This document shows positions 200 to 42,467 of a stretch of DNA of 64,000 bases, piece by piece. Under the pieces are notes generated by a model. It saw only the letters and a list, made by a program, of their open reading frames with translations. It had not been told where the DNA came from and did not search any database. This DNA comes from Hydractinia symbiolongicarpus (taxonomy: Eukaryota > Cnidaria > Hydrozoa > Anthoathecata > Hydractiniidae), in assembly GCF_029227915.1 (NCBI RefSeq), contig NC_079886.1:16406501-16470500 (forward strand), written 5' to 3'. The stretch's first letter is position 1; each line of letters starts with the position of its first letter. A program made the position numbers and the translations under genes.

Positions 200-2772
200 T
201 GCAAGATTCTATTGATGAAGAAAGAAAAGAAAAACCAAAAGACAAACGAATCGGAGGGCGTATCGTATACGACGACAGCGTGCCTAAATATATTCCACCT
301 GACTCGTGTTTGTTTTTGGAATACTTTGCAAAACACACCGGAAGAAACACCACTTTAGCGCAGATAATTCACAATCCTTCAAAAGAACATGATGGGAAGT
401 ATTTTTTCACCGTTCCGAATATGGAAGCAGAGTATGAGGCGATCAGAATTAACTTGAATATCGGTTGGTGTTCTAAGGATGGTTCTACTCACAAAGGCGA
501 CTTCACATCTGGTTCATTTTACAGAAATAAAATGGAACCAACAAAAAATTTACGAAGATTTGGCCCGACCGTGAACATAGCTCCAGGTATGTATATTTTG
601 CTTTTTGATTGTTGCATTTTTTCTGTGAATGATAAAGTTATCGTGTTTAAAGTTTTTTCCAAAAGCAGGAGTGCTTACCAGCATTTCTTTCTTTTTCGTC
701 TCAGAGTGGACTTAATACTAAAAGTGCAAAATTAAAACAATAAAGCGATTTTGAATTCAATGGACAAACTTTTCCGTTGCACAAAATTAAGATGAATAAA
801 TCTGAAATGTCTATGCATACAAGGATTTACCCGGTTAGCCTCGTCCTCAGGGCTTAAGCATGGGCGGCTTTTATAGAATATATAGGCACCGTTGGTAATT
901 GTGGTCAACTGTTTAAATTGCATATTCTGTATCTATCATTGATGTACAAGGCACTAGTATTGTCATGCGCATGCGCTTAATTTACTTAAAGAAGATGATT
1001 TTTCTTTTATTGCAGTGACCCGTAAAAGACCTTCAACAGAATCGACATCCTCAGGCGAACCTTCTACTACGGAGTCGACAACAACCGTCGACGAGTCAAA
1101 ATACACGGATGAGGTTTCCACGACGGATTCTACAATGGGTTTTGAAGTTTCCACGACGGACTCAATACCAACTAGCGAAGACCTAACTGACAACTTCTTC
1201 ACAACAAGATCGACAACTACGGAGAAAGATTCTACAACTGAGTCGACATATAATAACGACGCTTCAACAACCGAATCGACATTCAATAACGACGTTTTGA
1301 CAACAGAATCAATACCACTTGACGAAGTTTCCACAACAAAATCGACATTTAATGATAACGTTCCAACAACTGAATCGACATTCAATGACGACGTTTCCAC
1401 AACAGAATCGACATATAATGACGACGTTTCCACAACAGAATCGACATACTTTGACGACGTTTCGACAACGGAATCGACATTCAATGACGACGTTTCCACA
1501 ACAGAATCAACATTCAATGACGACGTTTCCACAACAGAATCAACATTCAGTGACGACGTTTCCACAACAGAATCGACAAACTATGACGACGTTTCGACAA
1601 CGGATTCGACATTCAATGACGACGTTTCCACAACAAAATCAACATTCAATGACAACGGTTCGACAACGAAATCGACATTTAATGATGACGTTTTCACAAC
1701 AGAATCGACATACAATAACGATGTTTCGACAACAGATTCGACATTCAACGACGTTGTTTCCACAACAGAGTCGACATTCAATGACGATGTTTCGACAACG
1801 GAATCGACATTCAATGACGACGTTTCCACAACAGAATCAACATTCAGTGACGACGTTTCGACAACAGATTCGACATTCAATGACGTTGTTTCCACAACAG
1901 AATCAACATTCAGTGACGACGTTTCCACAACAGAATCAACATTCAGTGACGACGTTTCCACAACAGAATCAACATTCAGTGACGACGTTTCTACAACAGA
2001 ATTGACATTTTATGACGACGTTTCGACAACGAAATCGACATTTAATGACGACGTTTTCACAACAGAATCGACATTCAGTGTCGACGTTTCCACAACAGAA
2101 TCGACATACAATAACGACGTTTCGACAACGGAATCGACATACAATGACGAAGTTTCCACAACAGAATCGACACTTAATGTCGACGTTTCGACAACGGAAT
2201 CGACTTGCAATGACGACATTTCCACAACAAAATCGACATACAATGATGATATTTCAACAACAGAATCGACATTCACTGGTGATGTTTTAACAGCGGAATC
2301 TGCACCAACTAAGAACATTTCGCCGACAAAGTCGATAATGCTGGAAAAAAAAGTTTCCACAACAACGTCCAAAGTAAGAAAAGTGTCTAGTACTCACCGA
2401 GGGTCCTTAACAATGACAAGCGAGCCGTCGTATGGTACAGATTTTAAGGAAGTGAAGCCCACTACTTCCAAAGTGATTGTACCCACCAATAAACCACCAA
2501 ATTACATGCAACACAGTAGGCGAACTACACCTTCCAAAACCTCTCTCATTTTTAACATTGAGCTGGAATGTCCAAGCGCTTGTCCTATTGAATGCTGTGC
2601 TGATGCGAGCAGAGTGAAAATGAAAGTATCACTATCAAAAAGCGATTTAGACAGACGCCATCTAATAGATAGATGTTCCACAGGATGCATCAGGGCCGTC
2701 AGAAGATCAGCAAATAAGAAAAAGAAGAAAAGTTACATACGGAGAAAATATTGGTTCAATCGTCAGCGTTGA
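200..2772 (+). CDS. Secreted YbaY-like domain protein with 33x 11-aa Ser/Thr/Asp repeat and short C-terminal CRD (5' partial)
   Basis: Two exons are visible, 200-586 and 1016-2772 (stop TGA). The first opens after a TTTTTAG acceptor in phase 1, so a signal-peptide exon must lie further 5', probably outside the window. The first exon encodes a divergent copy of the domain seen in the next three genes (GGRIVYDDSVPKYIPPDSCL, then IIHNPSK), which resembles the bacterial YbaY/YscW family. The intron is phase 1, as in the paralogues. The second exon holds about 33 tandem 33-bp units of consensus VSTTESTFNDD (roughly 1230-2310), a likely O-glycosylated acidic rod. A C-terminal segment follows with CPSACPIECC, which resembles half of a minicollagen CRD, plus two more cysteines and a very basic end (KKKKK). 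A structural secreted or nematocyst role is inferred. The gene model is good; the function is unknown. Confidence 0.75.
1230..2310 (+). repeat. 33-bp coding tandem repeat, about 33 copies
   Basis: In-frame 33-bp units encode VSTTESTFNDD and variants. The central block is the most homogeneous and both edges degenerate (VLTTESIPLDE on the left, VLTAESAPTKN on the right). The pattern suggests recent amplification by unequal exchange. The period is a multiple of three and stop-free, so it also generates long shadow reading frames on both strands. Confidence 0.95.
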
Positions 2773-4159
2773 AACACAGCGAAAGTGCAGAAAATGACAA
2801 ACATGTGATTTAAATTTTATATAACTTTTTTATATCAACTTGATTATTTACCAATCACGTGTATAACAAAGTGTTTTTAAAGATTTTATTCAACACCCTA
2901 GTAATGTTATTAAGGAAAGTATTTAAGAGGTAAAGTTCGCCCAAGTGCTCGCTACATTTGACTCCCACCACTTATTTTTGTTTTCTTAACCCCAAGTGAA
3001 TTTAAAACTCGTCCAGCCAACTGTAACTAACTATGTTACATATCTGCCAGTAGGACCTATAGCATCGGCTTCTCTTGCTTGTAAATCAAGTACGTTATTT
3101 GACTTTTAGAACGAAGAAAAATCTCAGGAACTATTGCTGCTTTTTGTCCCTATGATATGTCCTTTTCCTTTGTTTTTTTCATTTACACATCCCAGACTGA
3201 TTGCTGCTTTCAAATTGCTTTGTTTTATAAAGCATTTATGCTTCGCGTTGCTTATAAGTTGTTGCTTACATGAAAAAAGAGTGAAGTAAGAAACCCCTCT
3301 TCTCACAATATGCCTAAATTATACCTAGAGATATTATTTTAGGGAAATCATTTAGCCGCTATTTTCTTTATTCGTAATTGTAAACCGTTCGTTACTTTAA
3401 TTCAATTTCATCATTGTAACCCATCTATGTGCTAGCAAAAATGTGCATTGTCCTCTGCTGGCATGGTATGAAATATGGCGCTAACTATTAGCTCGTAACT
3501 CATTTACAGCAAAATTCTGTCGCATGGTGGATGGACACAATCACAATTATTTCCAAAGTTTTTAAATTTTAAATTTTTTTCTAACAAACACTTTTCTCGT
3601 GCCGAAGTTTTTTTAAAAAACATTTTATAATAGATTTTTTGGTTCGTTATGTTATCATCGTAAAATGGTAAGTAAACTATTACCCTAGATAAAGCATGTA
3701 TGAAAATGGAAATAAAAAAATAGAAAAAAATTCAATTTTTTTTATTTTTGTGCTCTTCATTATCAACACTCTGATTTCAATAAATCATGTTGTGTTTGTT
3801 CTTCAAACTATAGTACCAGTTGACTGTAATTTAATATCACGAGTTATAGAAAAGAAGTTAATTCATATGGTACTGCGTGGTTGATTTTTTGCACTATAAA
3901 TTGACGTTATTTATAGTAGAATCTCAAATACGCCAATAATATTGAGTTTAGAGAATGTCAACTTTATATGCAATGTTGGTCAAACGAAGTTGGTCACATT
4001 TATATGCCGCTTTTTCGATTGTCACCGTCAACTTGGCTGATTTCGATGCGTGCTAAACGCAATAGTAGACTAAAGAGTCGGTTCTCAACATTTAAATTAA
4101 GTTAACCCTAAGTTTTTGTCTCATTTTTTTATTATGCTGATGCAAATATTATTTTAGAC
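2773..4159. other. Intergenic, no gene seen
   Basis: AT-rich spacer between the first and second array members, with only short unsupported reading frames. No CRD or YbaY-like segment was seen on either strand. Confidence 0.6.
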
Positions 4160-5413
4160 ATGGCTGCAGAATTAACAGTTACCATGAAAGTTACTGCAAT
4201 TTTAATGTTATTTATTACGACTCAATCATTTCCCAAACCAACTCCGGAAAGTATTGACGGTGAAATACTTTATCCACCCACGTTTATCGAAATCATTCCA
4301 GAAAGTTCTTGTTTAATTGTACGGCTTTTGGACATATCTTTGAAAGACGTACCTGCTGTTGTCATTGCGTCTAAAGTGTACCGTCAACCATCCAAACATA
4401 CTACCAAAAAATATTCTATTCAGATATCGGACCAATTGTTGTCTTCTTCAAAGCAATATGCAGTTGACGCAGTCGTTAATCTTGGTTGCTGCTCACAATC
4501 ATCTGCAGTTGTTATAAAACAAGACGACTATAAATCGGAAGGAAAAATTCTCACAACAGAAATGGTGCAGAATGCTGTACATGGTGTCATTAGAGGACCA
4601 TCGCTAACTTTGCAAAGAGCAGAGGGTAAGAGGAATCTACCTTATTGTGGGAAAGTGGCTAATTTTAAGGATCGCTGACTAACGCTTCTCCCAGCTAAAA
4701 GTCTTCCTCCTACTGACTTATTCTGTGACTAACATTTTTATCCTACTAACCTTAACCCAACTACAAATCTAACGCAAGCTTTTTTACCATTTTATTTTTC
4801 ATTTGAATGTTTAAATTTTGTTCCCACTGAAGTCAAATTAACTAGTTTCATAATAACTTATGAATTTAGTGATAAAAGGAGAGGGAAAGGTGAGAAGGTA
4901 GAAGATACAAAGCCATGATTTCTTTCGAAATAACCAGACATATTATCTTTTTTTACCTGATACCCAACACATTAGTCGGGAGAAAGGGATTACTGAAATT
5001 TTTCTCGACTACACGCTAGCCTAAACCCTGGTTTCTTTTTCTTAAATATGTTAAAAAAAATTTGTAACCAGTGAGTCTTCATCAAATTTTTTATATAAAT
5101 TTGCACTCTAGGAACGTCTTTACCTGCACCAGATCCAGTTCAATCTAATTGCAATTCCGATGGATTCATAACAGATTGTGACGCTAACTATGGTAGTGTT
5201 CCAACGGTGGGATGTGCTTCCCCAGCATGTGCGCCACAGAACTGCTTATCAAGTGAGTGTGTGCCGCCAACTCCGCCGTTGGAAGTGCTTCCTTCACCAT
5301 CAATACAATCAGAGATATCTGGCATTTCTGCAACTTTTCCTGCACGTTTTCTATCCAGATTAAATATCAACCCGACATCAGTTCACGGAATTTTAAAAAC
5401 AGATGTTCCATAA
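4160..5413 (+). CDS. Secreted YbaY-like domain protein with degenerate Cys-rich tail
   Basis: Exons 4160-4625 and 5112-5413 join in phase 1 (G^GTAAGA donor, CTCTAG acceptor). Start ATG 4160, or the in-frame ATG at 4184, precedes a hydrophobic signal peptide (MKVTAILMLFITTQSFP). Residues about 30-155 match the paralogues and the YbaY/YscW pattern: DGEILYPP, then IPESSCLIVRLLDISLKDVPA, IASKVYRQPSK and VVNLGCCSQS. The second exon has the same position and phase as the CRD exons of the next genes. It carries only scattered cysteines (SNCNSDG, TDCD, GCASPACAPQNC, SECV) without a CC pair, followed by a hydrophobic/Ser-rich tail. It is best read as an array member whose CRD has decayed or diverged. 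The product is probably secreted; its function is unknown. Confidence 0.75.
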
Positions 5414-5696
5414 ACTAATTATGTTAACAGTGCACTTAATTCGAAGACTAGATACCCCTAGCAAATTACTTAGTCCCTTGGACGATTTCTTCTCGGCATG
5501 TAAAACGTCCGCCGAATTTTGTCACAGAATATCTAATTTTCCGAATGCAAATTCTTTAAAAATGTTTTTGATGTTTTATAAACTCCATAATCTCTTTTTG
5601 TTGGCTTCACGCAGTTTCGAACCTTGTTGATTCAAAAATGACGAAATTTAATACCTAACTTTAAAAATATTAACAATGATAGAGAAATAGACCATT

Positions 5697-5749
5697 AATG
5701 TGAACATTCTGTAAATGCATGGATAACGCATTTATAGAATGTTCACATT
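5697..5749. repeat. Near-perfect 22-bp inverted repeat (hairpin)
   Basis: Arm 5697-5718 is complementary to arm 5728-5749 across a 9-base loop. The single imperfection is a G:T pair, i.e. a wobble pair in RNA. It lies about 280 bp 3' of the preceding gene. It could be a 3' end or processing structure, a small-RNA hairpin, or a relic of an inverted-repeat element. Confidence 0.7.
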
Positions 5750-7717
5750 TATGAACAATCGGGTTTATTGTTATAAAAACAATTCTAAGTTAATTTATTG
5801 AATTCCTTTGAAATTGAATTGAATAGAGTAAACGCGCATAATACAATAGATCTGTTGACGTTGTTTATCTTTCTCCTTTTAGTATTTCTATGGTAAATGG
5901 TATACTTCTGAAAATATAATCTTGATACAATAACGATATTTTTAAGCTTTTTTAAGAAAACTAATAGTCTCGGTAACCCACCTTTTTGTAGGGATTTTTA
6001 TGGTCCTTACTAAATCTACTGGGGAGTTTTTTAAAAGTTTACGCCACACCATAAATAATTTCAACATTCACTAGTATAAATACAAATTTGTTCGTTGCAT
6101 TATACAATTCGTTTGATTTCTGTTGCGTGAGTTTCCTCATGCATGTGTTTTTTATATCCGAGGCCAAATGTAGGAATATAGTCAGTTAAAAATGCAAAAC
6201 GAGTTAAGAACATTTAAGGTTTATAATGAGTTTATGTTGATAAGAAATCAATAAAATGTGTTTTTAAGAAAGTTGTAAAGGCATCTGGAGTTATTCCTAT
6301 TAACATCATCTTCTCATCCTGACAAAAGGAAAATTATAAATTAATCTTTTGTAAGGAATCTTGGAAGCAGCAGCTGCTTTTCTTATAATTTATAATACAC
6401 CTCAATGCACGCATGCGCATAATCACTCACACACAGTTAGAATAAAGAATTTTTTAAATTAAAAAAGTCATAACGCGCAATCAAATGTGCGCATGCGTGT
6501 AACATGCGCCAATATTGTAAATATAACTTTGGGGTAGCTATATTTTTAATGTTGGCGCATCATACACCTCTGTAAATTGTTTGTCCCATGTTCTGTCGAC
6601 ACCAATATAGTCGGCTAATCCTTAGCACAACACATATTTTTTGTTGTTTTGTCCAGTGTTCTAATATCTCGTCGCCATTTTAATTGTATCTTCCAGCTCA
6701 CTAGCTTCCCCAAGAAAGATAATACAAAAGTAAATTTTACACCGTCGCTTTTCTCAACCAATAAAACGCGCTCTATCGTGGCTTGTTTATCAGAATTGAT
6801 AAAACATAAATATCTGATAAGAAAAAAACAGTGCATGAAAATGAATTCAATCACCTCAATTATTCAGTTTCAGTTCCATGTAATATGTTTGATCGACCTA
6901 GTCCCTCAGGCTTGTTATTTTTTTATATTTGGACGGTAAAGGTTGTTCCATCGTTGTTCCAAACCAAAGAGCCTCAGGACCGTGCTAAACTTTATTCCCT
7001 ACAACACGCTTTTTTCAATTTTTGCGCATTAGGGGTGGTCCATGAAGGACGTCTACACCATGGGGAAGGCGGCAGGGTGGTTAGCTAAAATGGAGACAAA
7101 GTGGGAGAGGGTATTTAGCTGCAAGCGGACATCATTTAAAGAAAATTTCCTGCGGGAAAAATTGTGCGGACGTCGATTTGCCCCGCGATTGTTATGGTTA
7201 GCTCTGTTAAATTGCTTCCGGTGTATTTCATGCAAACTCACCTAAAAGTTTTTACGCCCTGTTGCAGGTAGCTCCATGAATAGTGTATCTTTCTTTGCAC
7301 CAACTGTAATGAAATCTTAATAGATCTCACAGGTTTAGCAAGACTATTACAGTAATCCAAGAACATATTTTAAAAAACTAATTTGATTTTTGGGCGCAAG
7401 TGATTCCTGTAGAGAGGATTTTCAATAAATATGTGGTGGAAATTCTACAAGTTTGTCATAATTCTTTAACTTAGTGTGCTTCTATGAAACGTTATGCCTG
7501 GTTAAAATACAATTAAAAAGTTTGTGAAGAAATGTTAAATGCAGGTGCTGTAGCTTTCAATTGTGGAATTTCCTTTTCATACAGAAAGAGACTTTTGTAG
7601 CTACACGTCTTTAGCTCAATGAAGCATGAAAAGAAACAATGGTGTAAGAACTTCAAAGGTGTAAAAATTGCCAGCAAAAAAAAATTTTTTTTTTTCCTAA
7701 ATACAAAGAAAAAGAAA
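5750..7717. other. Intergenic, one GC-richer repeat-like patch
   Basis: No supportable gene. The segment about 7025-7215 is clearly less AT-rich than its surroundings and has open frames on both strands without recognisable domains. It is probably a fragment of a dispersed repeat. A (GT/CA)-type ATGCGC-rich patch lies near 6400-6510. Confidence 0.45.
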
Positions 7718-9018
7718 ATGAATCCGCTTATCTTTTTGTTGCCTTTGTTTGTTGGCATCCATGCTTCGATTAATCTTCATGGAAAAAAAGTGGAAGGAAG
7801 AATATTATATCCAAAGACTTTTCCTGAATATGTTCCAAGTGGCTCCTGTTTGCATGTTTCCTTATTAGATGTCTCAGTACAAGACGTGGCAGCTCCAGCC
7901 ATTGCACACAGAGTGTATTACACAGTAACAAAACACTCGACGAAAAAATACACCTTGCATTTCCCCAGAAATGATTTTCCTGACTCCACAGTATTCAGTG
8001 TTGGTGCGGTATTGAATATTGGTCATTGCTCATCATCGTCAGGTCCTACCGTAGGCAAACATGATTACATATCAGATACGCAGAATACTATTTCCCGAGA
8101 AAGTATTGACGAAAGTACTGGAAACAAAATTGAAGGACCTGAGGTTTACCTCACAAATGTTGGTAAGTGACTGCGTTTTTATCTACATGCAATTGGTGAA
8201 CAAAAACTTAAGCTTCGTTCACACACCTACAGATAAGGAAAAATCGTTTAACAACAGAATTTTGTTATAACTGTGAACACTTTTATCTTTTACCATCGCT
8301 TTAAACTGAATATAAGAATGAAGTTAAATGAAGCTAAGCGATATTTTTTATATCATTAAAAAAGTGTTTTTGAGGAATAGAAAACGCAGTATAAATTTTC
8401 CTTCTAAGGAAACCTTAGCCTTTTGCCCTTAAAAATATTTTGAGTGATGACAAGACCAATCTTTCTCTCTAAACGATAACAAGAACTGCACGTAAGGTAA
8501 AGGTTTCTTTGCAAGGCTTCGTTTATCTTACACCGTGTCCATAACTTCATGGGTTGCTACTGCTCACTGTTTTAATATATCGTACCTGCGAACTAAGTTT
8601 AAAAGCTAATAGTTTTTTTCCCTATTTTGTTCAAACCTTCTTTTTATTTTTTTGTATGTTCGTAGACATCGTTAAAACAAATGAAACGACCTGTCCACCG
8701 CAATGTCCGCTACCTTGTCCGGATACTGGATGTCCAGAAAACTGTTGCGTCCCGATAGATCAACCGAATTATCAACTTTCTTCACAACAAGTATGTCCAG
8801 TCACATGCCCTACAGTAGCACCAACATTGCAACCAACACCTTGTCCAGTATGTACTAATCCACCATGCCCACCTTGCACAACGCTACCTCCTTGTCCTGT
8901 ATGTACCACACCTCCTTGTCCGGCTTGTCCTACACCACCTGCTTGCCCCGGCTCCTGTTCAGTGCAATGCACACCAAACTGCCCGACGCAATGCTGCCAG
9001 ACTCCTATGGCCGGTTGA
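7718..9018 (+). CDS. Secreted YbaY-like domain plus paired minicollagen-type CRD protein
   Basis: Exons 7718-8162 and 8666-9018 join in phase 1 (G^GTAAGT donor, TTCGTAG acceptor). ATG 7718 is chosen because it starts a signal peptide (MNPLIFLLPLFVGIHAS); the open frame further 5' is low-complexity. Residues about 20-148 form the YbaY/YscW-like domain: EGRILYP, VPSGSCLHVSLLDVSVQDVA, AIAHRVYY and LNIGHCSSS. The CRD exon encodes a first CRD CPPQCPLPCPDTGCPENCC (spacing 3-3-4-3), a Pro-Cys spacer built of PCPVCTxPPCP-like units, and a last CRD CPGSCSVQCTPNCPTQCC (3-3-3-3). Minicollagen CRDs fold by disulfide pairing and cross-link capsule proteins. No Gly-X-Y repeat is present. The product is likely a nematocyst-wall or matrix protein, by inference. 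Confidence 0.85.
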
Positions 9019-9649
9019 TATGGTAACAAGGAGATGTGGACCGCGTGGTGCGCCAATCTTCATAATATTTTATGGAATTATAGCTAGCAAAAATATTTGC
9101 AGTTAAAGAATTTGGGTGAAAACGTTTACCATTTTGTAGACGATTTGTTGTTTTGCTTTGCTTAAGAATCTTTATAATTTATTTGTATTTTTATATTGTA
9201 CTAGTAAAAACTATGTAAAAAAACAGAGTATTATTTTTATTTATACGGAATGATTTTAAATAGCTTATTTTGTTTGATTATTAGCCAGTGCAATAATGTT
9301 CATATTCAGCGAAAAAAATTATGCATATAATATTATGCATGTATTTGTTGCAAGACTATGTAAATAATAGCTAAGGTGGTCATTAAATTCAAATGTTTCT
9401 TGCTTATTCAACCCTGGCGGGCGAAAGTGTTGTGGCCTGGTTTATCATGACTCCATCACTTCAAATGACAAGATCATTTGCCGAATAATTTATTGCAAAA
9501 TTATAGTTCATTAGAGCGTATGATTTTAACGGTGATTTAGCACGCAGGTAAAATATTCAAACAAATATCAGCATTCTGCCATCATCGTAATTTTTTTTCT
9601 TATTGTGACCTGAAGAGGAAATTGTAATCTGGTGAAAAGAAAAAGCAAG
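9019..9649. other. Intergenic, no gene seen
   Basis: AT-rich spacer between two array members. It presumably contains the 3' UTR of the upstream gene and the promoter of the downstream one, but I cannot assign either site. Confidence 0.5.
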
Positions 9650-10439
9650 ATGAAGACACACCTTATCGTGCTAGTATGCCTAATTGGGTCTGTATTCTCA
9701 ATCAATTTAGATGGCAAAAATGTCGAAGGTAGCATCAAGTACCCTGCCGACTTATCAGACGACTTACCTGCAGGTAGTTGCCTGATTGCCTGTATAGCTG
9801 ACACTTCAAAGCAAGATGTCGCTGCTAAATGTTTGGCGCACGAGATATATCGCAATCCTTCAAAAGCTAATTTGAAATATTCAATCCCATTTCCAAATAA
9901 GGATATTCCACGAGGTGTTAGTATTGATATGGTGTTGAATGTTGGCCACTGTTCAAACTCGGGTGATTTTCAAGTCAAAAATGGTGACTATGTAACTCGC
10001 GAACTGAACACCATTGACGACAACGAAATGAAGAACCCCGAGGGCGATGTGGTGAAAGGACCAACGATAACATTGATAAAACATGGTAAGATCATGTTAG
10101 GTTATTTGTTTTGTTTTTTCTTGCATTTTAAACTTCTCATGGATTGATTACTTATCAAATATTTTTCTTTTTTTAGACGAATGCCCACCACCATGCCCAC
10201 AACCTTGTCCCCCTACTGGGTGTCCCACCGACTGCTGCACTATGGGTGGCGTAATGGAAATATCTCAACCAACACCACCTCCATGTCCAACCCAATGCCC
10301 TATTTTACCACCCTGTCCAGTATGTACCACTCCACCTTGTCAGAATATAAATTGCATTCCTCAATGTCCACCTTCTTGCGCCAACCAGTGCGGACCCCTT
10401 TGTCCAACACAATGCTGTGGTATGAATGGAAAGAAATGA
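9650..10439 (+). CDS. Secreted YbaY-like domain plus paired minicollagen-type CRD protein
   Basis: Exons 9650-10085 and 10177-10439 join in phase 1 across a very short 91-bp intron (G^GTAAGA, TTTTTTAG). ATG 9650 starts a signal peptide (MKTHLIVLVCLIGSVFS). The domain at about residues 20-145 is the clearest copy in the window: GSIKYPADLSDDLPAGSCL, ADTSKQDVAAKCLA, YSIPFPNKDIPRG and LNVGHCSNSGD. It matches the YbaY/YscW layout Gx(V/I)xYP, P-x-G-S-x-L, D-x-S-x-x-D-A and PFxxxDI. The second exon has CRD1 CPPPCPQPCPPTGCPTDCC (3-3-4-3), a Pro/Cys linker, and CRD2 CPPSCANQCGPLCPTQCC (3-3-3-3), ending GMNGKK. It is the closest relative of the neighbours at 7.7 and 11.5 kb. A structural extracellular role is inferred. 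Confidence 0.87.
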
Positions 10440-10609
10440 AATCGAGAATAGCATTTATGAAGAGGCTGCGAAATGGGTCGCCTTTTTCGACATTAATGAC
10501 TTACACGAAAGCCTAATGAGCAGAAACGCAAGGAGGATACACGCGGAAAGCGATTCGTAGACTTTATTATCTTGTTACTGTTGTGAGATGATTGTATTTT
10601 CTGCAATTA

Positions 10610-10615
10610 AATAAA
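10610..10615 (+). promoter_or_regulatory. Candidate polyadenylation signal AATAAA
   Basis: Canonical AATAAA about 170 bp after the stop codon of the preceding CRD gene, in an AT-rich 3' flank. Plausible by position only. Confidence 0.45.
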
Positions 10616-11545
10616 TTATATACCAGAACGAATATGTCTTTATTGCACACCAGTGAATTGTAAAGTATATTGACAAGTGCTTATCGAAATTTGTCGAGAA
10701 AAATCAGTTTATAAGCCAAACAAAAAGCGTTCATTCTTTATATTGAAAGAAAGGTTGCTGCAATACACCATTTGCAATTATTTACAAAGTCCTCTAAACA
10801 CGCCTCACAAAAAAATCACCTGTTTACTATCACTGGCTTTTGGAATTTTCAAGAACATAAGATCCTAAAAACATCGAAGCAGAGGGTTTTAGATTTTCTA
10901 ATTGTTAGAAGGCACACGCGTGCGCTTTGCTATGACTTTTAATCAAAACATTTGGGTTGGTACCTATTGCTGCACGTGTATAGAATATCGGACTGCAATT
11001 TGCCTTTAAATTCTAAAACAGTATGCAAAAACCGCAAGAACATTTTTGTTTAATATTTCTTGATCAAAGTGATGCACTATAGGCAAGATTTTGACGAACT
11101 TTCCGAAAGACGTCGTCGAGAGAATTCGTAAAAAGTTTGTTATGTGTGTTAAACTCTCATCAAATCTTGCGTAAATATGTAAATGTAATTAACTTTGATT
11201 TGATCGTTTCAAGGTGAACTGAACTAGGTTTTGTAACCTTTGTACATTCTTTTTTGTATATGCAAGAGAATTGTTCTTTCCACTTCAATGATTTTACACC
11301 TGCTATAATTATTTGACAAATGGTGCATTAGAACATCATGCTCTTTAGGGCAATGATGCAATGAAACTTCCCTTTTATGCTCAAAGTGAAACGTGTAGTT
11401 AGTGAAGCAAGCGAAAGATTTCAATTCTAACCAATCACATCACACTTTGAAATCACTGTTAAAAAGAATTAAACTTTTTCCAAACAGTAACGTTAGATCA
11501 AAGCGAAGTTAACACGTCGAAGGTTCAGCAAAGAAGAGAGCTAAC
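10616..11545. other. Intergenic, no gene seen
   Basis: Spacer between two CRD genes. No domain, CRD exon or RNA gene was recognised on either strand. Confidence 0.5.
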
Positions 11546-12185
11546 ATGGCCAAATTGCACGCAACACTTTTCTTTTTTAGCTGTTTAATTGCATCGGCGT
11601 ATATGCAAAGTAAGTTTTTTTTTTCAATGATTAGTTTCATTGCATCACTGCTTACGTTTGCGAAATTACTTTTTATGTCTAAGCCTTGATGATTCTTGAA
11701 AGCAAATTTTTTGATCCTGTATGGAGGTTAGCACCCGGCTTTAAGATGCTTCAATATTTCAATATTCCTATGTTTCGATATTTTGTGACTTGTCTCTTTG
11801 AGTGACATCATACGAATTATAAGGATGTATTTATTGTTTATCATTTGAATTTTTAATATCTATTTTGTATATTTATTTAGATTGTCCACCTATTTGTCCA
11901 CAGCCTTGTCCACCCACTGGATGTCCACCGAACTGCTGCATCCAAGCTGGCACACAAACTACCCAGAGTGTCTCCCCACCAATTTGTCCCCCAACCTGTC
12001 CACCACGCCCATGTCCACCATGCCCTCTACCTCCTTGTCCATGTCCACCAATAACTCCACCACCTTGTCCATGTCCTCTTCCACCATGCCCACAATGTCC
12101 TTGCCCACCTCAATGTGCAACTACATGTGGCCCAACTTGTCCCACAACATGTTGTACTGGTCCCTTTAATGGCAAAAAGAAGTAA
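11546..12185 (+). CDS. Short secreted protein of two minicollagen-type CRDs with Pro-Cys spacer, no YbaY-like domain
   Basis: Exon 1 (11546-11609) encodes only the signal peptide MAKLHATLFFFSCLIASAYMQ. It is spliced in phase 1 (GTAAGT donor, ATTTAG acceptor) to exon 2 (11881-12185). The mature protein of about 100 residues is almost entirely CRD1 CPPICPQPCPPTGCPPNCC (3-3-4-3), a dense Pro-Cys spacer (CPPCPLPPCPCPP-like) and CRD2 CPPQCATTCGPTCPTTCC (3-3-3-3), ending with a basic GPFNGKKK. The CRD exon aligns end to end with the second exons of the genes at 7.7 and 9.6 kb, so this copy appears to lack only the YbaY-like exon. Minicollagens also have a signal peptide, polyproline and two CRDs, but the collagen helix is absent here. 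Confidence 0.87.
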
Positions 12186-14164: not shown

Positions 14165-15225
14165 TCAAAAACTGGCAGCAATAAATCCAAGGATAACTCC
14201 AAATATGGAAGTCACTACGCCAATCCAACCGATAATGTACGACCAACCGATAGAGCCACCCTGTGTGGACTCCACTTTCGAGACAAACACCACCAAAGCT
14301 ATGACCATGCAACCAGCTTGAAGTTAAAAAGAAGTTAAATACTTTTAATACTTGGCCTAGCTAGTTCTTTTAGGTCAACTACAGTGTTTTTTTTATTATT
14401 GTTATTTATCACTCTATTATCCCGTATATACAACTACACTGTTAAAAAGCACATGCCTTATACATGGGTTTAGGCCAACTGAGCCTTTATTCTGGAGGTT
14501 TAACATATTTACCACCCCTCCCCCTCCCCTTCCCCTAAATTTAAAACACAAAAGTAATAACGCTCAATTTCCCTCGAAACATGTTGAAAAATAGGCGCAT
14601 TTTCTGAAGTTTAAGTAACATATTTATAGGCCCATGGGCCTTTATACGGGAGGGTTTTTCAAATTAAAAGTCTTAATTCCGACAAAAATTAAGCCCATAG
14701 GCTTTTGTGCGGGTACAACCTCTTGACCAGACAGCCGCCTTACATATCAAACTAAATCAAGTCAAACGCTTAGCAGAAAAAAACGTTTCACACTTTTATA
14801 TTCTTTAGTACCCACGACCTTCCGTACTGAAAATGAATGCTCTACTATCAGAAAGAGGATCCATTTTTAACTAACTAAAATAAATTAATCAAGGCATTAC
14901 CTGCAGCCGCGAAAAATACGGAAGCGAAAATACTTTTCACTTTCTCAGTAAATAATCCCAACAAAGACATCACGATTGCACCAATACTAGCCATACAACT
15001 TAAAACTGCAAAGGCTCTGACAGACTTGAACCAACTTGGTATGATTTTTCGATTTTCACATTCATCATTTCGGCATGTCTTCCACAAACCAGCATTAGCT
15101 TTGAATGTAAAACCTCTGATACTTATCTCCACTTTTGTCCACACATTTCCTCCAACACATGCAGCGATAAAAACAAGGGACAATCCAGCTATGGCTATTA
15201 GTGCAACTTGCCCAACTTTCACCAT
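14165..15225 (-). CDS. Claudin/PMP22-family tetraspan membrane protein
   Basis: Exon 1 is 15225-14901 and exon 2 is 14316-14165 (stop TGA), joined in phase 1 (G^GTAATG donor, TTCAAG acceptor); 158 residues. ATG 15225 opens TM1 (VGQVALIAIAGLSLVFIAA). The first extracellular loop has the family signature W-GLW-C-C: GGNVWTKV, then NAGLWKTCRNDEC. TM2 and TM3 follow (SVRAFAVLSCMASIGAIVMS and IFASVFFAAAG), the last crossing the splice. Exon 2 supplies the end of TM3, a loop, and TM4 (GWSYIIGWIGVVTSIFGVIL). The short cytoplasmic tail has no PDZ-binding end. Invertebrate claudin-like proteins form septate-type junctions or act as PMP22/EMP-like tetraspans; which applies here is undetermined. Confidence 0.85.
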
Positions 15226-18200
15226 CACGACACTAGTAAACAAAACACAATTGAAAAATACAGAACAAACTCGTCCCTACGGCATGTTGGCTTTTTTTCT
15301 GGTTCCGCCAAAATACAAAAAGCTTAAAGCTCCTAAGGGACAAGGGTAAGAGACCAACGTGGGCGTGACAAGGCCTTGTTTTATTAAACGATATGCAAAA
15401 ATTGGATACACTCAATCATAGTGCCGTGTTTTTCCTGTGTGCGCAAAAATGGAGATAAATTTTTGGCTTAGTTTGTTTACATTTTTACCTCCATTTCTGC
15501 ACGCGCATCGGACATTACGCAACCACTTAGATGCGTGCGCAAGTAAATATCGGGACTGTGATTATGTATTAAGCCTTACAGGGTAGAGTTCTCAATTACG
15601 TGAAATTTTATACTCACTTTACTCACTTTCTGCGTGGTTATTGTTTTATTATGTGCCACTCGGATACACGCTTTTTTTATAAGTGACGCTAAATTTAAGC
15701 TACGCTTCAATGTTGTTTTTGTTTGTTGATTATCTACTTTTGGAAAGACCAAATTCAAATGTTTGTCATTTAAGCTGGCGCGTCAATTGAAAATCAAATT
15801 TAAGTTTTAGTCACGTTGTCGTATATCACAATGATGGGTCATACTTTTATTTTAAGTTTTATACTTTCTTAAGGCTTTTATAGGTTTTTTAAACTTTTAA
15901 CTTTTTGGGGGACTTACCTAAGTTTTAGAAATAGAAAAATCTCGGATTGCCCTCTTTTTGATTTTCTGCAGGGTGTCTTTCTTCTTTAATTTTTTGACCA
16001 AATTTGGCCTAAAACAGTAAATTTTTATCATGCCTTTTTTTTGTTTACTAGGCTAAATTTCATCAAAAACCGAAACGAGCCCTAGTCGGCAATTCAGATC
16101 ATTGTTACAGATCCCGGAAGGCAGCTATAGTATTTGCTCAAAAAGACAGCGTTCCGTACAAAAGAGGCCATTATACTTGATAGTGAAAGAGTCAGTTTTA
16201 ATGAAACACTCTCCTTTTGGGGCTGGATTTATTGATTTTCAGCGGAAATTTAACGGATTAAATGAAGCTAGGAGAGGATTTCTATTCTATACATTAGTAG
16301 AGGAACTTTAAAAACATCATGTCGTCAAAAAAGGATAAAACAGAAATTAACAAGATTTTTATCAGTGAATGAAGCTTATTAACAGAAAAGTAACAAATAA
16401 CACGCTCGTTTCTAATGCTTTCTTAAGATTTTAGTTGTTAATCGAATTCGATTTGTCGAAATTATATTGAGCATTAAAATGAAAATCGAAACTTAACAGG
16501 TAACAAGGTGATGATACACGATCCAATTAATCGAATTCGATTTATCGACATTATGTTGAGCATTAATATAAATTGAACAGATTTTTGATAATTTCCTTTC
16601 GACAGAGTTGAACTCGCTGCTGTTACAGCTATTATTACAACAACTAAAAAATTAAGAAAACATTAGAAACGGAGTGTGTTATATGTTACGAAACAAGTTT
16701 CGGTCAGAGCGAGAAGATTATTTTAGTTTTCTTTTTTGATAAAAATATCGTTAAATTCTTTTTTATTTTTTGTTTTTGTTTTTAAACATCTTCTAGTAAC
16801 GTTTATTCTTGACATAGAAACTCACATTTTTCTGAATGAACATTTGATGTACAAATTTTAAGCATTTTGATTGGCTAAAAACGTTTCGATTAATCGAAAA
16901 AGTTGAACCAGTCCGTGTTTTTAAAAATCGAATTCTACAAGTCTGAGCATGCCGCAAGCATACGATTTTTACATGATCACCGCCTTTAGAGTTTTCTTTG
17001 AGGACGGATGTGATACTATGAAGTGATAAATCTGTATCAACAAACAAAACATAAATGAACTTAGAACAACAAAAAGTCACGTAACCACGTGACCACAAAT
17101 CTACTGAAATACGTGGTACGTGTTGTTCCTATGTACCAACTACTAACAAGTCCTGGGGACGAAGTGGGAACAACAGCACTTTGGTAGGTAATATACCACA
17201 CTTCTTAAACGCAAAGTGCCCACTACAAATACAAAAAAGAATGTTCTTGGCAGGTGGCACAATTTAATAATCGTCAGTTTAATTTTCATCAAAAACATCA
17301 AAATTATTTGACTAGTTGAATAAAAAAAAGCGACAACCTTGTCCCCAGAACATGTTAAGTTTCTTGCACTGGGATGGATTCTGTCCCAATATGAAAAATA
17401 AACAAGTGCTGGGGACGAGGTTGGAAAAACAGTCATTTTTAAATGAAGGCTTCTAATGTTTATTTTAAAGCTAGGACATTTTTAGTCCCGTATTTATATT
17501 TGAGGTCATAGGTTATGAACATTTACCTCAAGTAATCTATTCTTCAACCTCGAACCCAGGACCAGTTTTCTCTTATTGTATATCTGACAGCGAGACCTCA
17601 AACCTGTCAATCAGCGCTGCGACCATAAACACGCTAACTATTTATAATGTCCAAAATGTTTCACAGTTAAGTTGCCAACAAATCCAAATGCTTCTATAAT
17701 TTAAAATTGTCACAAGCTTGAAAAAAAAGTGATCCTAAATGAACTAAGGGACCTTCACTTGTTTAACTGCTCCATTTTTGCCACCATGGAAAAAGAGGCA
17801 AGAATAGCCCTGGGTGTTCCGTTGTCATGACGTGACTACTCTTAAATGTTAACATGAATTTTCAAAAATAGTAATAAAAAAATAAATATTTTGTTAGCTG
17901 CTTCTGTTTTTTATCAAAATTTCTTTGCAAGCTTTCTAAACAACGAAACTCGCTGTTGCAACATAGTTATAAGTTCGCCTTTATTTATAAAGTACATAAC
18001 CATTGAGAGTTTCCTATCAAGATTGTCAACAAAGTGCGGTTATGGGCTGATATATGGAAGATCAGCAGATTTATGGGAGTGTTTTACAAACTCTTAATTT
18101 TTTCTGCGTGTCAGGCTACAGGGCGATTTTTGATTGCTTTATTCAGTCATTTAAATTTCCTCTTCATACTGTTCCAGGTACCAATCTGGAACATTGAATC

Positions 18201-26500: not shown

Positions 26501-29500
26501 ATTTTCCTCACAAATGTAACAAGTCTATGATATAAAAGAATGTTAACACCAAAAGTTATATTACGTTTATCGAAAGATCTTTAAAAGTTAGGAAAGAAAA
26601 AAACGAAAGAAAAAATGATTTTTTGGAGACTAAGGAAATACCTTAGATTAATTAATTTCCGCGAAGAATTGTTTTCATAAATGAAATACTTTTTCACAAT
26701 TTTAATGCTTTTTAAGCCAATTTATTGAAATAAGGTAGCCTTTAATTGCACTTGCTTATGTTACAAAATTCGCGATAGTTTCATTGTTTTGATTTTAACA
26801 ATGACAACGCCACCGCACACTGCCAGCATTAATTCCAAATAATCAAAAACAGTAAAAACGACATCATTATTTTTTACAGTTTGACTTTTTTTTCTCTAGT
26901 TAAAATGTAACGAAAGCTAAACAAAAAAAAATCAGGATTTTTGGAGCCTATAAGAGAAAAAATTGTTGATGTTTTAAGATATTTTATAATTGCCGTAAAG
27001 CACAAATGTTCGAAGTGTTAAAAACCACAATCTAAAAGTCTTCCCTAAGCCTTGTTACATTATTCAAAATTAAGTACATATTTATTGTTTTACTTTCCGA
27101 ATTTTTAGCCTAGTCAGATTTGCTAAGTGCATGACTTTTAATCAAAATCTCAGTTTCACTTTGTATGCTTGTTTACCTTCAGAAATCTTTCATGAGGCAC
27201 CGATGAAAATATAATGGGCTCCATTGTGCTGACATCACCAAAACGCACTTCAGGTATGTACAGTGCACAAACAACATGAGCCCAACCTGTAACAAAAATC
27301 GCATGCTGTGAAATAAATATTGATTAATAAATTGCAGTCTAACAGTAGGTTCGGGGACATACCAACATTATCTGTTCTTTTTAGTGCACCTTCTTTTGAA
27401 GGACATAGTTCACATTTCTAAAAACAAGTAAAAGAAATGATCGGGTTAACAACTCCTTTTTGCTACGCTGCATGGCTATGATCCTGGGTTTAAACAAATA
27501 TCTAACAAGAGGAGCTTCAAACAACAGGTTCACACTTCCCTTGGTCAACACAGAATTTGGCAAAAAAGCCTTCCCTCTTAGACCTGCAAAAGTGTGGAAT
27601 AATCTTCCAGACCAAGTGACCTGTGATGGAAGTCTGGTTTCGTTTGAGACTTCAATCTCTAATGTATTTAACAAATTCTAATGGAAATCACTCATTTGGT
27701 TGACCCCATCCCAGAATTACGTCATCATCAACTTAACTACCCTCCCCTAAGAAAACAAAAATATCCGTAAAAAATTATTAAAAGTTTTATATTTTAGTAT
27801 TTTTCACACTCATGATAAAATATGGTGTTAATTTTTTTTGGATTGCTTATGTCATCAAACTACTTGACCAAGGGGTAAAGTAGTTTGCCCTCCCTATTTG
27901 ATTACGTAATATGTGAACGCTCCATAATATGTTTGCAACAGACCAAACCAAATAGAGTAAGCCATGTAACTGAACTACACTGAAAAATAAATCACTTACC
28001 ACCCTGGCAACTCTTTCTTGAGATCTACATTTGCAACAAAACCAAGGACCACTTGGAACTTTAACAATGCCATAACAAGCTACAATAGAATAAACACAAT
28101 TAAACACCAAAGAGAATTAAAGGTTGTTATATGTAAGGGTAGTCAACTGGAAGCAAAGTAAACATGGCACACCAATAATCAATTTTTGTGATATACTTAA
28201 TAGATGATGGGATAGAAAAGGGCATTAAAAATCACTGGAAACAACTATACAGCATCATCACAACACCTTGGTGTTAAAATATCTGCACAAACTGTGACAC
28301 TTAGCTCAACATATAGCTATATACAAAACAAGAAAGAAATATAATGTCAATTTGCAAACAATTCCTGTCTGTGAAGAGAAAACCTCTTTACATTTGGACT
28401 GGAAGCACTGTAAGCCACTTGCCATTGATTTGTTAATGGTTATTTTGTTGCAACAACCATTATAGTTTATAAAAAACGGGATATGCAATTTTAACATTTT
28501 TATTGTAAAATGATTCGCAAAGACACTATTGGCAACTTGCAAATTGCAACATAGTAATTCGAACCCTGTTTAAGGATTTCAATCTATGAAAACGCATTAA
28601 TCTACAAAAAAAGCTACAATCCATGCCAAACCATCAATTTCCATACACTACATCAGCTTACATTGGCCCTTCCAACAACATTGTCCACCAGTACAACACA
28701 ATAAAACATCTGTCAAGTGTCTTTTTTAATCCAGTCATATTTTAATATTTAGTAGAATATTTTCTAGCAGATTAAGTAAGGTACAGGTTGTCGCAGAGGC
28801 TATCGAGACAGACCCTGATGACAATAAAATTTTTCTATAGTTGTTTTTACAGTGCACAAAACAAGACTTCAATAAAAACATAACGCACAAGGTCTTTGAA
28901 CAAGAAAAAAGCAACTTTGCAATAAATTGTGCGCTCCGAGCTTTTATATTTTTAAAAGCATGAGCGAATTAAAAATTAAAAAATAATAAAAAAGTACCAA
29001 AATTCCCTTAAGTTGCTCTTTTAGTGTTACGACCAAACATAGTATGTCAATGCTAAATGCCAACATGAATTTATAGGGCTGGAGCTTTTAATGCTATGCT
29101 CCCTGTTTTATTCATTGTTTTGGGGTTTATTTGGCTGAAAATGTTTTACTGCAATTGAATATTATGGTTAAATTCTTATAAAATTTAAAAACTTTGTTTT
29201 ATAAATCTTGTTCTGATAGTCACATGGTAAATATTCAACACTTTCTATGTTATATAATTTTTGCTGGTAAATCCAAATATGCCATTCATTTTCCCCAAGT
29301 TTTTTTTTCTCTTTTAAAATTTAATGTTGTTAACCCGAATAGGAGGGTTCCGATAAGCTGCAAATGCCTCCATATATAAGGGTGAGTTCAGACGACTTTT
29401 TAAATTAAATTGTTGGTTGTCCTCCGAAACCGCCTGCACTTTCCCGAACTTGTCCATGACATTCTTGAAATGCAATTCCTTGTAATATTTATCAAACTTA

Positions 29501-30601: not shown

Positions 30602-31304
30602 ATCTTACATTACTTTGGCAAGTTTCTTATATTTCCAATATTAATTTAATAACAGAACCCACTTCCATGTGCTATAATAATCTTGTTTGCCCCTCATTTC
30701 TCTACTTGCCGCTTGCGCATTGCTTGTAAACTTTTTGAAATATCTACCAAGTTTGTCATTCATACGTTTATGAACATAATTTTTTGTTAGAACACATGGC
30801 CAGCCCTGAAGCTTCCATGCTAGATTATGAAACGGGGGATATGTTCATAAATCTGTTTTTCATAATTTTTTTTCACTTCTGATGTATATTTCATATTAAC
30901 TCATTAATTTCTAGCTTTAAATTTATTCGCGTAATTTTATGAGGTTAATGTAATGTAGTTATTAAATAAATATATTTTAGAGCCTTTTAATGTTTCTCTG
31001 ACGCTCCCTTAAACAAAATTGATTATAGCATTTCAAGCTGCCACCAACGTGATAAACCACATACCAAATATAATATAACATATAGAAAGAAAGAAATCCC
31101 ATTTACAAAAAATATATAAAAGAACAAGTAAGAAGTGGCAATTTTTTTTTGATTTGATTATCTTTAAAAAAATTTTATGTATCTAGTTCATATTATATTC
31201 TTTTTTTATCAACAATACCAGTCTGCAAAATATCCATTTGGACACCAGTTTCTTTGTTGGGGAAAAAGTTCTTCGTGGTGCATTTCAATGAAGAATCAAA
31301 AACG
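30602..31304. promoter_or_regulatory. Divergent promoter region between MLLT10-like and RBM45 genes
   Basis: About 700 bp separate the two head-to-head start codons, so both promoters and 5' UTRs must fit here unless there are upstream non-coding exons. The sequence is AT-rich with no evident CpG-dense core. Shared regulation is an inference from layout. Confidence 0.45.
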
Positions 31305-33287
31305 ATGATGTCTGCTCCACCGGTTGCAAATGGTGGATTTTCAGGGTATGATTACTATCCTTATGGTTATCAGATGCCAGTTGCTGCCACTGTAGTGTCG
31401 CAAGCATTTAATGGTTCTCAAGTTAGTTTGTCTTCTTCTTCTTCCATGAAAAATGATAACGATGTCCGAGAAAACAGAGATAAAGAGAGGGGTAGGGAAA
31501 GAAGGGACTCTCAGTCTTCAAGAGATAGAGATCATAAATCTATGTTTGGAAGTCAAGTGGATCATGATAAGCCACCATTTTCTAGGGTTTTTGTTGTGTG
31601 TAGTAAATATCATTCCAGTGACACACTAAAGAGTGCTTTTTTAAAATATGGAAATGTTGAAGACGTTTGGGTTGTAAAAGATAAACAAACAAAAGAAAAC
31701 AGAGGTGTAGCATATGTGAAATTTTCCAAAATGTCAGAAGCTTGCCTTGCGGTTGAAAGCATGGATGGAAAAAAGTTGACTGAAGATGATGACACTAAAC
31801 CTTTGAAGGTAGGGCTAGCTAAACCACTAGTTCAAACCACAATACTGTACGTTTGAACGTTGTTTGGAGGTTATTTTAAAAAAACCTGCCCTCTGTTTTG
31901 CTTAGCCAGATAAAAAATATATAAACAAGGTCTAAATCCCCAAAATGTGAAGCATGTCCAACAGGGGCGCTCTGCACTTGGTCAGTATTTTTTTTAAAAC
32001 AGAGCACAAAAAGCGTGAAATGTTTTTGTGGTGATGTACCCCAAACATTTGAGGCGGATTTATTCAATATTTGCGTATTGTTTAAATCATCAGTATTTCC
32101 AATGAATTGTTTTTGTTTACTCATGCAAGTTAAATATTTGTAAATTTATGAAAATATTTATATATATATAGGTTATTATTGCACAGCCAAAATCATCAAA
32201 ATCAACAGAAGATTTCAATGATGAATCAGCCTTAACACGTCTGTTTGTTGTTATACCAAAAGGGATGGATGAGAAGGATTTAAGAAAGGCTTTTGAAGAG
32301 TATGGCGAGATTGATTATGTTCAAGTTGTTAAAGATAGGAAAACTGGTGAAAAGAAGGGTTTTGGTTATGTAAAGTATAGGCGTGCTTATAATGCAGCGG
32401 TGGCAGTGGAGACCTGTGACAAATCTTATCGAGCAGTTATGGCGGAACCTAAGTCAGTTAAGATCAAAAGAGACTTAGCACATACAGATATGCAATCATC
32501 TAGTCATTTTGGTAGCATGGGTACTTCATTGGACGTGTCCCTGGGATTAAATACTAGTGCCAATCGTAGCGACATTCAAAGTGCAATCCCTCCCGGATTT
32601 GGTATTAATTTTCAAGAAAACCGAACATCTGCCGTAATAGGTAACAGATTACAAGTTCAAGTAGCAGTAACGGTAACGCAGGAACATTTGGCAAGACTTT
32701 TTGATTTGATACCAGGTTTAGAGCTGTGCGATTTAAAAAAGAATTATTCTACTGGAGAATCAAAGGGAGTTGCCGTTGTTGTTTATAACTCTGTTGGTTC
32801 AGCAATTTATGCAAAAGAAAAATTAAATGGATTTGAATATCCACCAGGCTACAAATTAATTGTACGGTATGCTCCTGATGAAGTCGATGGCAATGTTACT
32901 GCTGTAAGATCATCGCAATTAGACCTTTCTCATCCTACACAGCAATTAAATGCTGGAATAACCTATTGCACTGTTCAGTTACCTGCTGCTCAGCCACTTT
33001 CTGACTCAGAAACATGTGCAGAAAGACTTTTCATTGTATGTCACCCATCACCTCCCCCAGATAATGTGTTAAAAGATGTTTTTTGTCGTTTTGGGGACCT
33101 AATTGACGTCTTTATGTTAAGAAATAAAAATTTTGGTTATGCAAAATATTCTAGTGTGGAATCAGCAGAAAGAGCAATTAGAATATTGCATGGTGCAGAA
33201 GTGTTAGGGAAAAAATTAAAAGTTTTGCAGGCTGAGCCACCAAAGTCTTCTTCATCTGAAAGTGCACGCAAACGACCAAGAACTTAA
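31305..33287 (+). CDS. RBM45: RNA-binding protein RBM45
   Basis: Exons 31305-31808 and 32172-33287 join in phase 0 (AAG^GTAGGG donor, poly-TA then TAG acceptor); 539 residues. ATG 31305 was chosen as the first of a tandem MM before SAPPVANGG; translation could also start one codon later. RRM1 (about 93-170) has SRVFVVCSKY, then VWVVKDKQTKENRGVAYVKF. RRM2 (about 190-265) has TRLFVVIPKGMDEKDLRKAF and GEKKGFGYVKY, then CDKSYRAVMAEPK. RRM3 has LFDLIPGLELCDLKKNYSTG and SAIYAKEKLNGFEYPPG. RRM4 has ERLFIVCHPSPPPDNVLKDV, then FCRFGDLIDVF and NFGYAKY. A basic ARKRPRT end resembles the nuclear signal of RBM45. The RRM3 and RRM4 motifs are specific to RBM45. The N-terminal Ser/Arg-rich extension is longer than in vertebrates. 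RBM45 acts in nuclear RNA processing. Confidence 0.92.
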
Positions 33288-40553: not shown

Positions 40554-40970
40554 TTTGAAAAACGGAACCCTTTTTAACCCAGTTTAACTCACCGTTTGCT
40601 TTTTGAATTAATTTTAATTTCTTAGTTTTACTCCGTATATGGATGTCACATATCGATATAAAGAACTGTCGACATTTATCAAAAGTGCTGACGCTGCAGT
40701 CTACACCCAAGATTTCTGAAAGCGGCTGGATCCAGGGCCTTCTTCTTCGCGTCCCCGATATCAAAAAAGCAAAAGGAGGTCCTGGGGACGAGGTTGGTCA
40801 GCTACAGTCCCGTAAAGTATGCTAAAGCGTATCTTTTTTAACATCCATCCAGGAAATGTGTTAAATAGTTTGCTTTGAAATCATGCGCACAAAATATCTA
40901 ATCGTTTGATCTTTTATAGCTACTGAAGCAAAATTAATGTATAGATAAAAAAATCTTCTGTAAATTAACT

Positions 40971-42467
40971 ATGTTGCAGCTTATTCTTATATGGACACTT
41001 AGTGCTAAATTCGCATGCGGTGTGCGTTGGTACAACGATAAAACATTTCGCTTACCACAAAGAGAGCCCGTAAAGGTTGGATATACACGCGAAGTTAATT
41101 TGGCAATAGGAAGAACACACGTATTAAAGACATTAAGTGTAAACCCACCTATATTTGAAGTAAAGAACTTTCTCTCTTACGAGGAATGTGAGTACTTAAT
41201 CTACCTGGCGAAAAACGAAGGCTTGCAAAACAGCCCCACGCATCCAGAATTGTTGAATTTTTACACAACTCTCGAAGTGTTCATGGAATGGGATACTAAC
41301 AATGACTCGTACATAGAACCAATCGAATTCACTTACATCAAAGGAAAAGGGGACTTGTATCTCACCGAGTTGGAAATAATGAAAATGTTGGATCACTTAA
41401 AAATGGACAAAGATCACGACAATAGAATCAACTTTTCCGAATTTCTTGTTACGACAGCAGAAAAAATAAAAGAGTATTTTGTTCATTTGTATAAAACAAG
41501 ACCTTATTTGAGAAGCAGATACAGTGAGCAAGCTTGGCTTTGGCATTATGGAGTGTACGATGACCTATTGGAGGGATTTCATGAAAGATTGTCTGCTCTC
41601 ACTCTTCTTCCGCATGATTTGATAGAAGTTAGCGAGCCAATGCAGGTAAAAACTTTTTTCCCTAAAAACACACAGAAACGTGGAAAAACATCGTTAAAAA
41701 TTTTTTTTCACAGAATCCTTTGCATTCGTAAAAATTAAGTGTACACACTTAATTTTAAGTTGGAAAAATTTGTTTGTAAATTTCTAATTTGCAAAATAAT
41801 AATAAAGTAATAAAAATAATAATAATTTAATAATTATCAAGTGAAAAAAATAAGAACTTAAGGTTAAAGTCAAAGTTCTGTCGATTGTGATGATGCACGC
41901 CTAGGAGCACTGAAGATACTGTGTTATATTTTTTCACGTACATGTAAATATTTTCTGCAGGTAGTACATTATGGAGATGGAGGACACTATCACTGTCACC
42001 ATGATTCTAACGAAGTCGATAGCTCTCTTCCTTGTTGCACATACGAAAATCAAAACAGTTCTGCTTGCCGACTGTGTAGATTTTTGACTGTAATGTTTTT
42101 CTTAAACAATGTAACCTACGGCGGTGAAACGGCTTTTCAACTTGCTGATAACGAGACTTTTGCATCTGAAGCTTGGGAAAGCGAGGCAGTACGTAAATGT
42201 AATCTGGTTGATAATTGTGAAGAAAGCAATTTGGTTATTAAACCTGTCAAAGGCACCGCAATAATGTGGTACAATCATGAAATTGATCAAGCAAGCGGAT
42301 GGCTGGGCGAATTAAACCCAATGACGTATCATGGAGGCTGTGACGTCACCGATCACGACAAATGGATTGCTAATGTGTGGATAAATATTATTGGAGGAAA
42401 AGGAACACGTGATTCATATAATGGATGGCTAGGAAAGAGAATGGTAGACATGAAAGAAGATCTTTGA
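40971..42467 (+). CDS. P4HTM: EF-hand transmembrane prolyl 4-hydroxylase
   Basis: Exons 40971-41645 and 41961-42467 join in phase 0 (CAG^GTAAAA, TTCTGCAG); 393 residues. ATG 40971 gives a short hydrophobic N-terminus (LQLILIWTLSAKFACG) that would act as a signal or anchor. Two canonical EF-hand loops are visible: DTNNDSYIEPIE (108-119) and DKDHDNRINFSE (146-157). The 2-oxoglutarate/Fe(II) core is intact: HYGDGGHYHCHHDS supplies H238-x-D240, YHGGCDVTDHDKW supplies the distal H349, and K359 binds 2-oxoglutarate. Spacing H349-K359 equals that of human P4HTM. The family is ER-membrane bound and hydroxylates prolines, with HIF-alpha a reported substrate. Whether it modifies the proline-rich CRD proteins nearby is speculative. 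It is shorter than the 502-residue human protein, mostly at the N-terminus. Confidence 0.9.

What the first reader, a model, noticed from the sequence alone, without database searches (positions are those of the whole stretch)
200..12185. Tandem array combining a YbaY/YscW-like domain with minicollagen-type CRDs
Seen: four adjacent genes share a domain of about 125 residues with the pattern Gx(I/V)xYP..P.GSC(L)xxxxxD(T/V)S..DVA....A..(V/I)Y..PSK....Y.I.FP..D. A phase-1 intron joins it to a cysteine-rich exon; two genes carry complete CRD pairs. Known: minicollagen CRDs cross-link nematocyst wall proteins, and PF09619 (YbaY/YscW) is a bacterial envelope domain. Inference: a nematocyst or matrix protein family in which an immunoglobulin-size beta domain replaces the collagen helix. 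I know of no description of this architecture.
Basis: partly seen in the sequence, partly recalled or inferred. Interest (0 to 1): 0.87.

Follow-up and report, generated by a model that had tools for sequence, protein, structure and literature searches.

The report
Pilotin-fold proteins with stinging-capsule cross-linkers
In what appears to be a cnidarian, a family of secreted proteins joins a small folded domain best known from bacterial envelope proteins to the cysteine modules that rivet stinging capsules together, a combination we did not find described.

The parts
200..586 (+). Gene A exon 2: second YscW-like domain; symmetrical phase 1-1 exon
   Evidence: domain by HMM; no Pfam hit of its own
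1016..2772 (+). Gene A exon 3: over 30 copies of a 33-nt Thr/Ser-rich repeat, then a degenerate cysteine tail
2569..2598 (+). Gene A degenerate CRD core CPSACPIECC
4184..4625 (+). Gene B exon 1: signal peptide and YscW-like domain (in-frame alternative ATG at 4160)
   Evidence: PF09619 35.6 bits, E 1.3e-8 (from 4160)
5112..5413 (+). Gene B exon 2: six-cysteine tail without CC, degenerate
7718..8162 (+). Gene C exon 1: signal peptide and YscW-like domain
   Evidence: PF09619 27.2 bits, E 5.1e-6; model pLDDT 88.4; fold
8666..9018 (+). Gene C exon 2: CRD pair with Pro/Cys-rich linker
8692..8748 (+). Gene C proximal CRD, CX3CX3CX4CX3CC
8944..8997 (+). Gene C terminal CRD, canonical
9650..10085 (+). 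Gene D exon 1: signal peptide and YscW-like domain
   Evidence: PF09619 21.7 bits, just below the 22.6 cut-off
10177..10439 (+). Gene D exon 2: CRD pair
10182..10238 (+). Gene D proximal CRD, CX3CX3CX4CX3CC
10365..10418 (+). Gene D terminal CRD, canonical
11546..11609 (+). Gene E exon 1: signal peptide only
11881..12185 (+). Gene E exon 2: CRD pair (11883-11939 and 12102-12155), no YscW-like domain

Best explanation
Secreted structural proteins of the stinging capsule (wall, tubule or matrix). Each is: signal peptide, one or more PF09619-fold beta-sandwich head domains, a spacer (Pro/Cys-, Thr/Ser-, Gln-rich or polyproline), then one to three C-terminal minicollagen-type CRDs (degenerate in some members). 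Shown here: the architecture at DNA level, the fold by prediction, the gene family and its clustering. Inferred: expression in cnidocytes; that the CRDs form intermolecular disulfides with other CRD proteins when the capsule hardens and so anchor the protein; that the two invariant cysteines of the head form a disulfide; and that the head is displayed on the network to bind a partner or to pack with other heads. In logic this is NOWA with a pilotin-fold head in place of a C-type lectin.
Against: No expression or proteome data. No KR or RR site in B (exon 1), C, D and E up to the first CRD cysteines. A and B have degenerate tails, L110's is a variant, and the gene at C12:21.544 Mb shows no CRD in the 3.7 kb read downstream. 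The C3/C9 group shares frames with thyroglobulin-1/Kazal domains, so the domain itself is not capsule-specific. Outside genes A-E exons were joined by order and strand; splice signals scored only in part. By published positions 4 and 14 the terminal CRDs cannot be typed as N- or C-CRD.
Confidence: 0.68

Rival explanations
1. Disulfide-crosslinked extracellular matrix, perisarc or gland-secretion proteins that carry CRDs but are not made in cnidocytes.
For: The C3/C9 group of the same domain shares frames with thyroglobulin-1 and Kazal domains, an ordinary secreted mosaic. No KR/RR site in the checked stretches. Thr/Ser-rich mucin-like stretches.
Against: CRDs of this spacing are known to us only from nematocyst proteins (recalled; it also fits the passages read). 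The window holds three other CRD ORFs besides E, two of them polyproline-rich like CPP-1.
Confidence: 0.2
2. The YscW-like domain is an intramolecular chaperone or pro-domain that keeps the reactive CRDs from crosslinking during secretion and is then cleaved off.
For: It sits where the minicollagen propeptide sits; PF09619 is named for a lipoprotein chaperone; blocking by the charged propeptide is proposed in PMC4863159 (passages).
Against: No KR or RR site in the stretches of B-E checked. Gene E has the CRD pair without the domain. An array of 16 domain exons is hard to square with a disposable pro-domain.
Confidence: 0.08
3. A rapidly diversifying recognition or defence family, whose tandem copies reflect partner recognition rather than structure.
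For: Tandem arrays and about 55 copies; the domains of D, B and A are 20-41% identical to that of C.
Against: CRDs and spacer types are those of structural capsule proteins; 14 array exons and five C12 genes are near-identical, not diverse. No diversity or selection test was made.
Confidence: 0.04

Closest known systems
PF09619 YscW/YbaY family (E. coli YbaY; pilotin structures 5wec and 2yjl)
   Same: Fold, and the first ~80 of 107 profile positions
   Different: Two cysteines invariant in 32 of 32 animal copies, with no cysteine at either place in YbaY; introns; CRD or mosaic partners
Minicollagens
   Same: CRDs with CX3CX3CX3CX3CC and Pro11; signal peptide
   Different: No Gly-X-Y helix (longest run 3 triplets); no KR/RR site where checked; an added N-terminal globular domain
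NOWA
   Same: Globular head plus several C-terminal minicollagen CRDs (passages of PMC10014300)
   Different: NOWA's head is a C-type lectin; no such Pfam hit in A-D
CPP-1 and Cnidoin
   Same: Non-collagen spacer flanked by CRDs (passages of PMC6910907 and PMC4321713); the relative at C12:17.13 Mb has polyproline between its CRDs
   Different: No folded head is named for them in the passages read. Cnidoin has a 90-residue putative propeptide ending in Lys-Arg, which was not compared with this domain

Membership tests
PF09619 YscW/YbaY | Score above Pfam's gathering cut-off (22.6 bits) | tested here: met
   Met by B (35.6) and C (27.2); D 21.7 is below, A has no hit; 11 of 32 copies match at E <= 1
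PF09619 YscW/YbaY | Pilotin beta-sandwich fold | tested here: met
PF09619 YscW/YbaY | Bacterial lipoprotein or secretin-pilot function | not testable with these tools
   Function is not inferred from the fold
Minicollagen | Terminal CRDs CX3CX3CX3CX3CC | tested here: met
   Terminal CRDs of C, D, E are canonical; their proximal CRDs have CX4 in the third loop; A and B degenerate
Minicollagen | Central Gly-X-Y triple helix | tested here: not met
   Longest run 3 triplets in six frames of the window
Minicollagen | Propeptide ending in Lys-Arg | tested here: not met
   No KR or RR in B (exon 1), C, D, E up to the first CRD cysteines; A not checked
NOWA | C-type lectin domain with CRDs | tested here: not met
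   Pfam scan of the heads of A-D gave PF09619 or nothing
Nematocyst protein | Expression in nematoblasts, presence in capsules | not testable with these tools
   No expression or proteome data held

The most novel reading that the evidence does not exclude
A bacterial-type pilotin fold entered the animal secreted repertoire, was stabilised by a new disulfide, and in one group on one chromosome joined minicollagen CRDs and expanded into a family of stinging-capsule structural proteins, up to a giant member with 16 heads in series that acts as a covalently anchored rod or spring.
Probability: 0.25. Interest if true: 0.82.

Novelty: new variant of a known kind. Interest (0 to 1): 0.62.

Why it matters
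CRDs are the rivets of a biological pressure vessel that holds about 150 bar (PMC4863159, abstract). The collagen-free CRD carriers met in the passages read have a lectin, a polyproline or a silk-like partner. A further, expanded partner class with a folded and solvable head gives direct candidates for what the capsule network displays, for capsule-type diversity, and for CRD-crosslinked materials. It also places a domain known mainly from bacteria (recalled) in a large animal family.

Tried and rejected

Literature (open-licence library, so 'undescribed' is provisional): nematocyst + Pfam + YscW, 0 papers; YscW + Cnidaria, 3 papers, by listing oceanographic or ecological; PF09619/YbaY/'YscW domain', 40 of 104 listed, none on cnidarians by title; minicollagen searches, 20 of 23 listed, none with YbaY, and by listing.

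Rows dropped: the alignment and tree used 32 of 37 distinct copies (near-identical or partial ones left out). The 55 places were collated by hand at E <= 1e-3 in at least one of them; only adds them up. One (C12:17001942) has E 0.0013 and 0.0153 and is kept for its HMM E of 1.2e-31. Left out: a fragment with a stop on C1 (E 9.3e-6), weak hits on C2, C9, C12 (21379337) and C14, and a partial domain in L108. The tool calls its counts lower bounds. Loci L084-L103 were not scanned for CRDs, and C8 was not read.

Full report
The observation. Genes A-E were re-read from the sequence. Splicing at GT-AG sites gives open proteins for C, D and E and B, and for A once an exon just upstream of the window is added: 849 residues with a signal peptide, two domain copies, a 33-nt Thr/Ser-rich repeat in over 30 copies, and a degenerate cysteine tail. 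All these introns are phase 1. No transcript was available. C and D have a proximal CRD with spacing CX3CX3CX4CX3CC and a canonical terminal CRD; E has the same pair without the domain.

Identity of the domain. Pfam PF09619 is hit by B (35.6 bits, E 1.3e-8) and C (27.2 bits), both over the 22.6-bit cut-off, by D at 21.7 bits just under it, and not by A. Of 32 aligned copies from the own genome, 11 match PF09619 at E <= 1. Profile comparison with six enterobacterial YbaY proteins gives E 1.3e-5, probability 81%, with 8 sequences and E 9.9e-7, probability 91%, with 32; these E-values are for one pair and cover 62 columns. The family profile's best PDB sequence is 5wec, E 0.0016 (E 0.02 with fewer sequences), the only PDB hit of E. 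coli YbaY at E <= 10.

The family. Three searches of the own genome (480.9 Mb, 76 contigs) give 55 places, collated by hand: 33 on C12, 13 on C9, 5 on C3, 4 on C8 (one kept for its HMM score). An unrooted tree of 32 copies puts the 17 from C12 and the 15 from C3/C9 on two sides of a branch with support 100/99. Two cysteines are invariant in all 32. Strict CRDs occur 22 times in the C12 loci read (149.5 kb) and not once in the C3/C9 loci (115 kb), nor in 20 shuffles of either set. Of the 22, nine are in the window; five of those nine belong to E (two), the 44-kb ORF (two) and the CPP-1-like ORF (one), which lack the domain, and one in L110 is not assigned to a domain gene. That leaves 16 in domain genes. 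C8 was not read.

Domain with CRD. Thirteen C12 genes had downstream sequence in hand; five near-identical genes at 21.48-21.53 Mb are represented by one. Nine are followed on the same strand by a strict CRD exon: C, D, and genes in L104, L104/L105, L105, L106, L109, L111 (the one at 21.547 Mb) and an array of 16 domain exons (14 of them about 1,589 bp apart), downstream of which an exon carries a Thr/Ser stretch and three CRDs. That the array is one gene is inferred; its middle was not read in full. One more, in L110, has a variant CRD; A and B have degenerate tails; the gene at 21.544 Mb shows none in 3.7 kb. In eight domain-CRD pairs checked for splice signals (six outside the window, plus C and D), a phase-1 donor scored in 7 (not L109) and a phase-1 acceptor was among the scored candidates in 5 (none scored for L104, L109 and C; C's acceptor is). 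On C9, one frame holds the domain with thyroglobulin-1 (L113), one holds it with thyroglobulin-1 and Kazal domains (L121), and one holds the last two without a scored copy (L119).

Mechanism. CRDs form intermolecular disulfides in nematocyst proteins, and NOWA pairs them with a lectin (passages of PMC4863159, PMC6910907, PMC4321713, PMC10014300). By analogy the CRDs here anchor and the beta-sandwich is displayed. Shown: architecture, predicted fold, family. Inferred: cell type, crosslinking, head disulfide, head function. Against: no KR/RR site in the checked stretches of B-E, and the C3/C9 group in ordinary secreted mosaics.

Organism. CRDs point to a cnidarian. Genome size and contiguity are consistent with Hydractinia symbiolongicarpus (483 Mb, 15 chromosomes; abstract of PMC10411563), but this was not established. 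Passages of PMC12549020, PMC2687796, PMC11876637 and PMC7981951 were also seen; none of those shown describes this architecture.

Noticed in passing
43963-44889 (-): ORF with two strict CRDs, one CX3CX4CX3CX3CC variant and polyproline stretches, no collagen run
   Followed up: partly
51182-52194 (-): CPP-1-like ORF: CRD, long polyproline, variant CRD; a further CRD-like ORF lies beside it
   Followed up: partly
40938-42467 (+): Two frames with EF-hand and 2OG-Fe(II) oxygenase hits, perhaps a prolyl-4-hydroxylase-type gene, between the CRD genes
   Followed up: partly
14875-15276 (-): PMP22/claudin family hit
   Followed up: no
31158-33287 (+): RRM protein exons
   Followed up: no
27847-28116 (-): Frame resembling a PHD finger (recalled, not searched)
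   Followed up: no
G000:C12:16975000-17002400: Array of 14 near-identical domain exons about 1,589 bp apart plus two divergent and one partial, with a three-CRD exon downstream
   Followed up: partly
G000:C9:16095000-16160000: YscW-like domains, some in one frame with thyroglobulin-1 and Kazal domains
   Followed up: partly
G000:C8:20073300-20075460: Four more YscW-like domain exons; not read
   Followed up: no
L002:2361-5625 (-): Reverse-transcriptase-like retroelement frames upstream of gene A, recognised by eye in an ORF list
   Followed up: no
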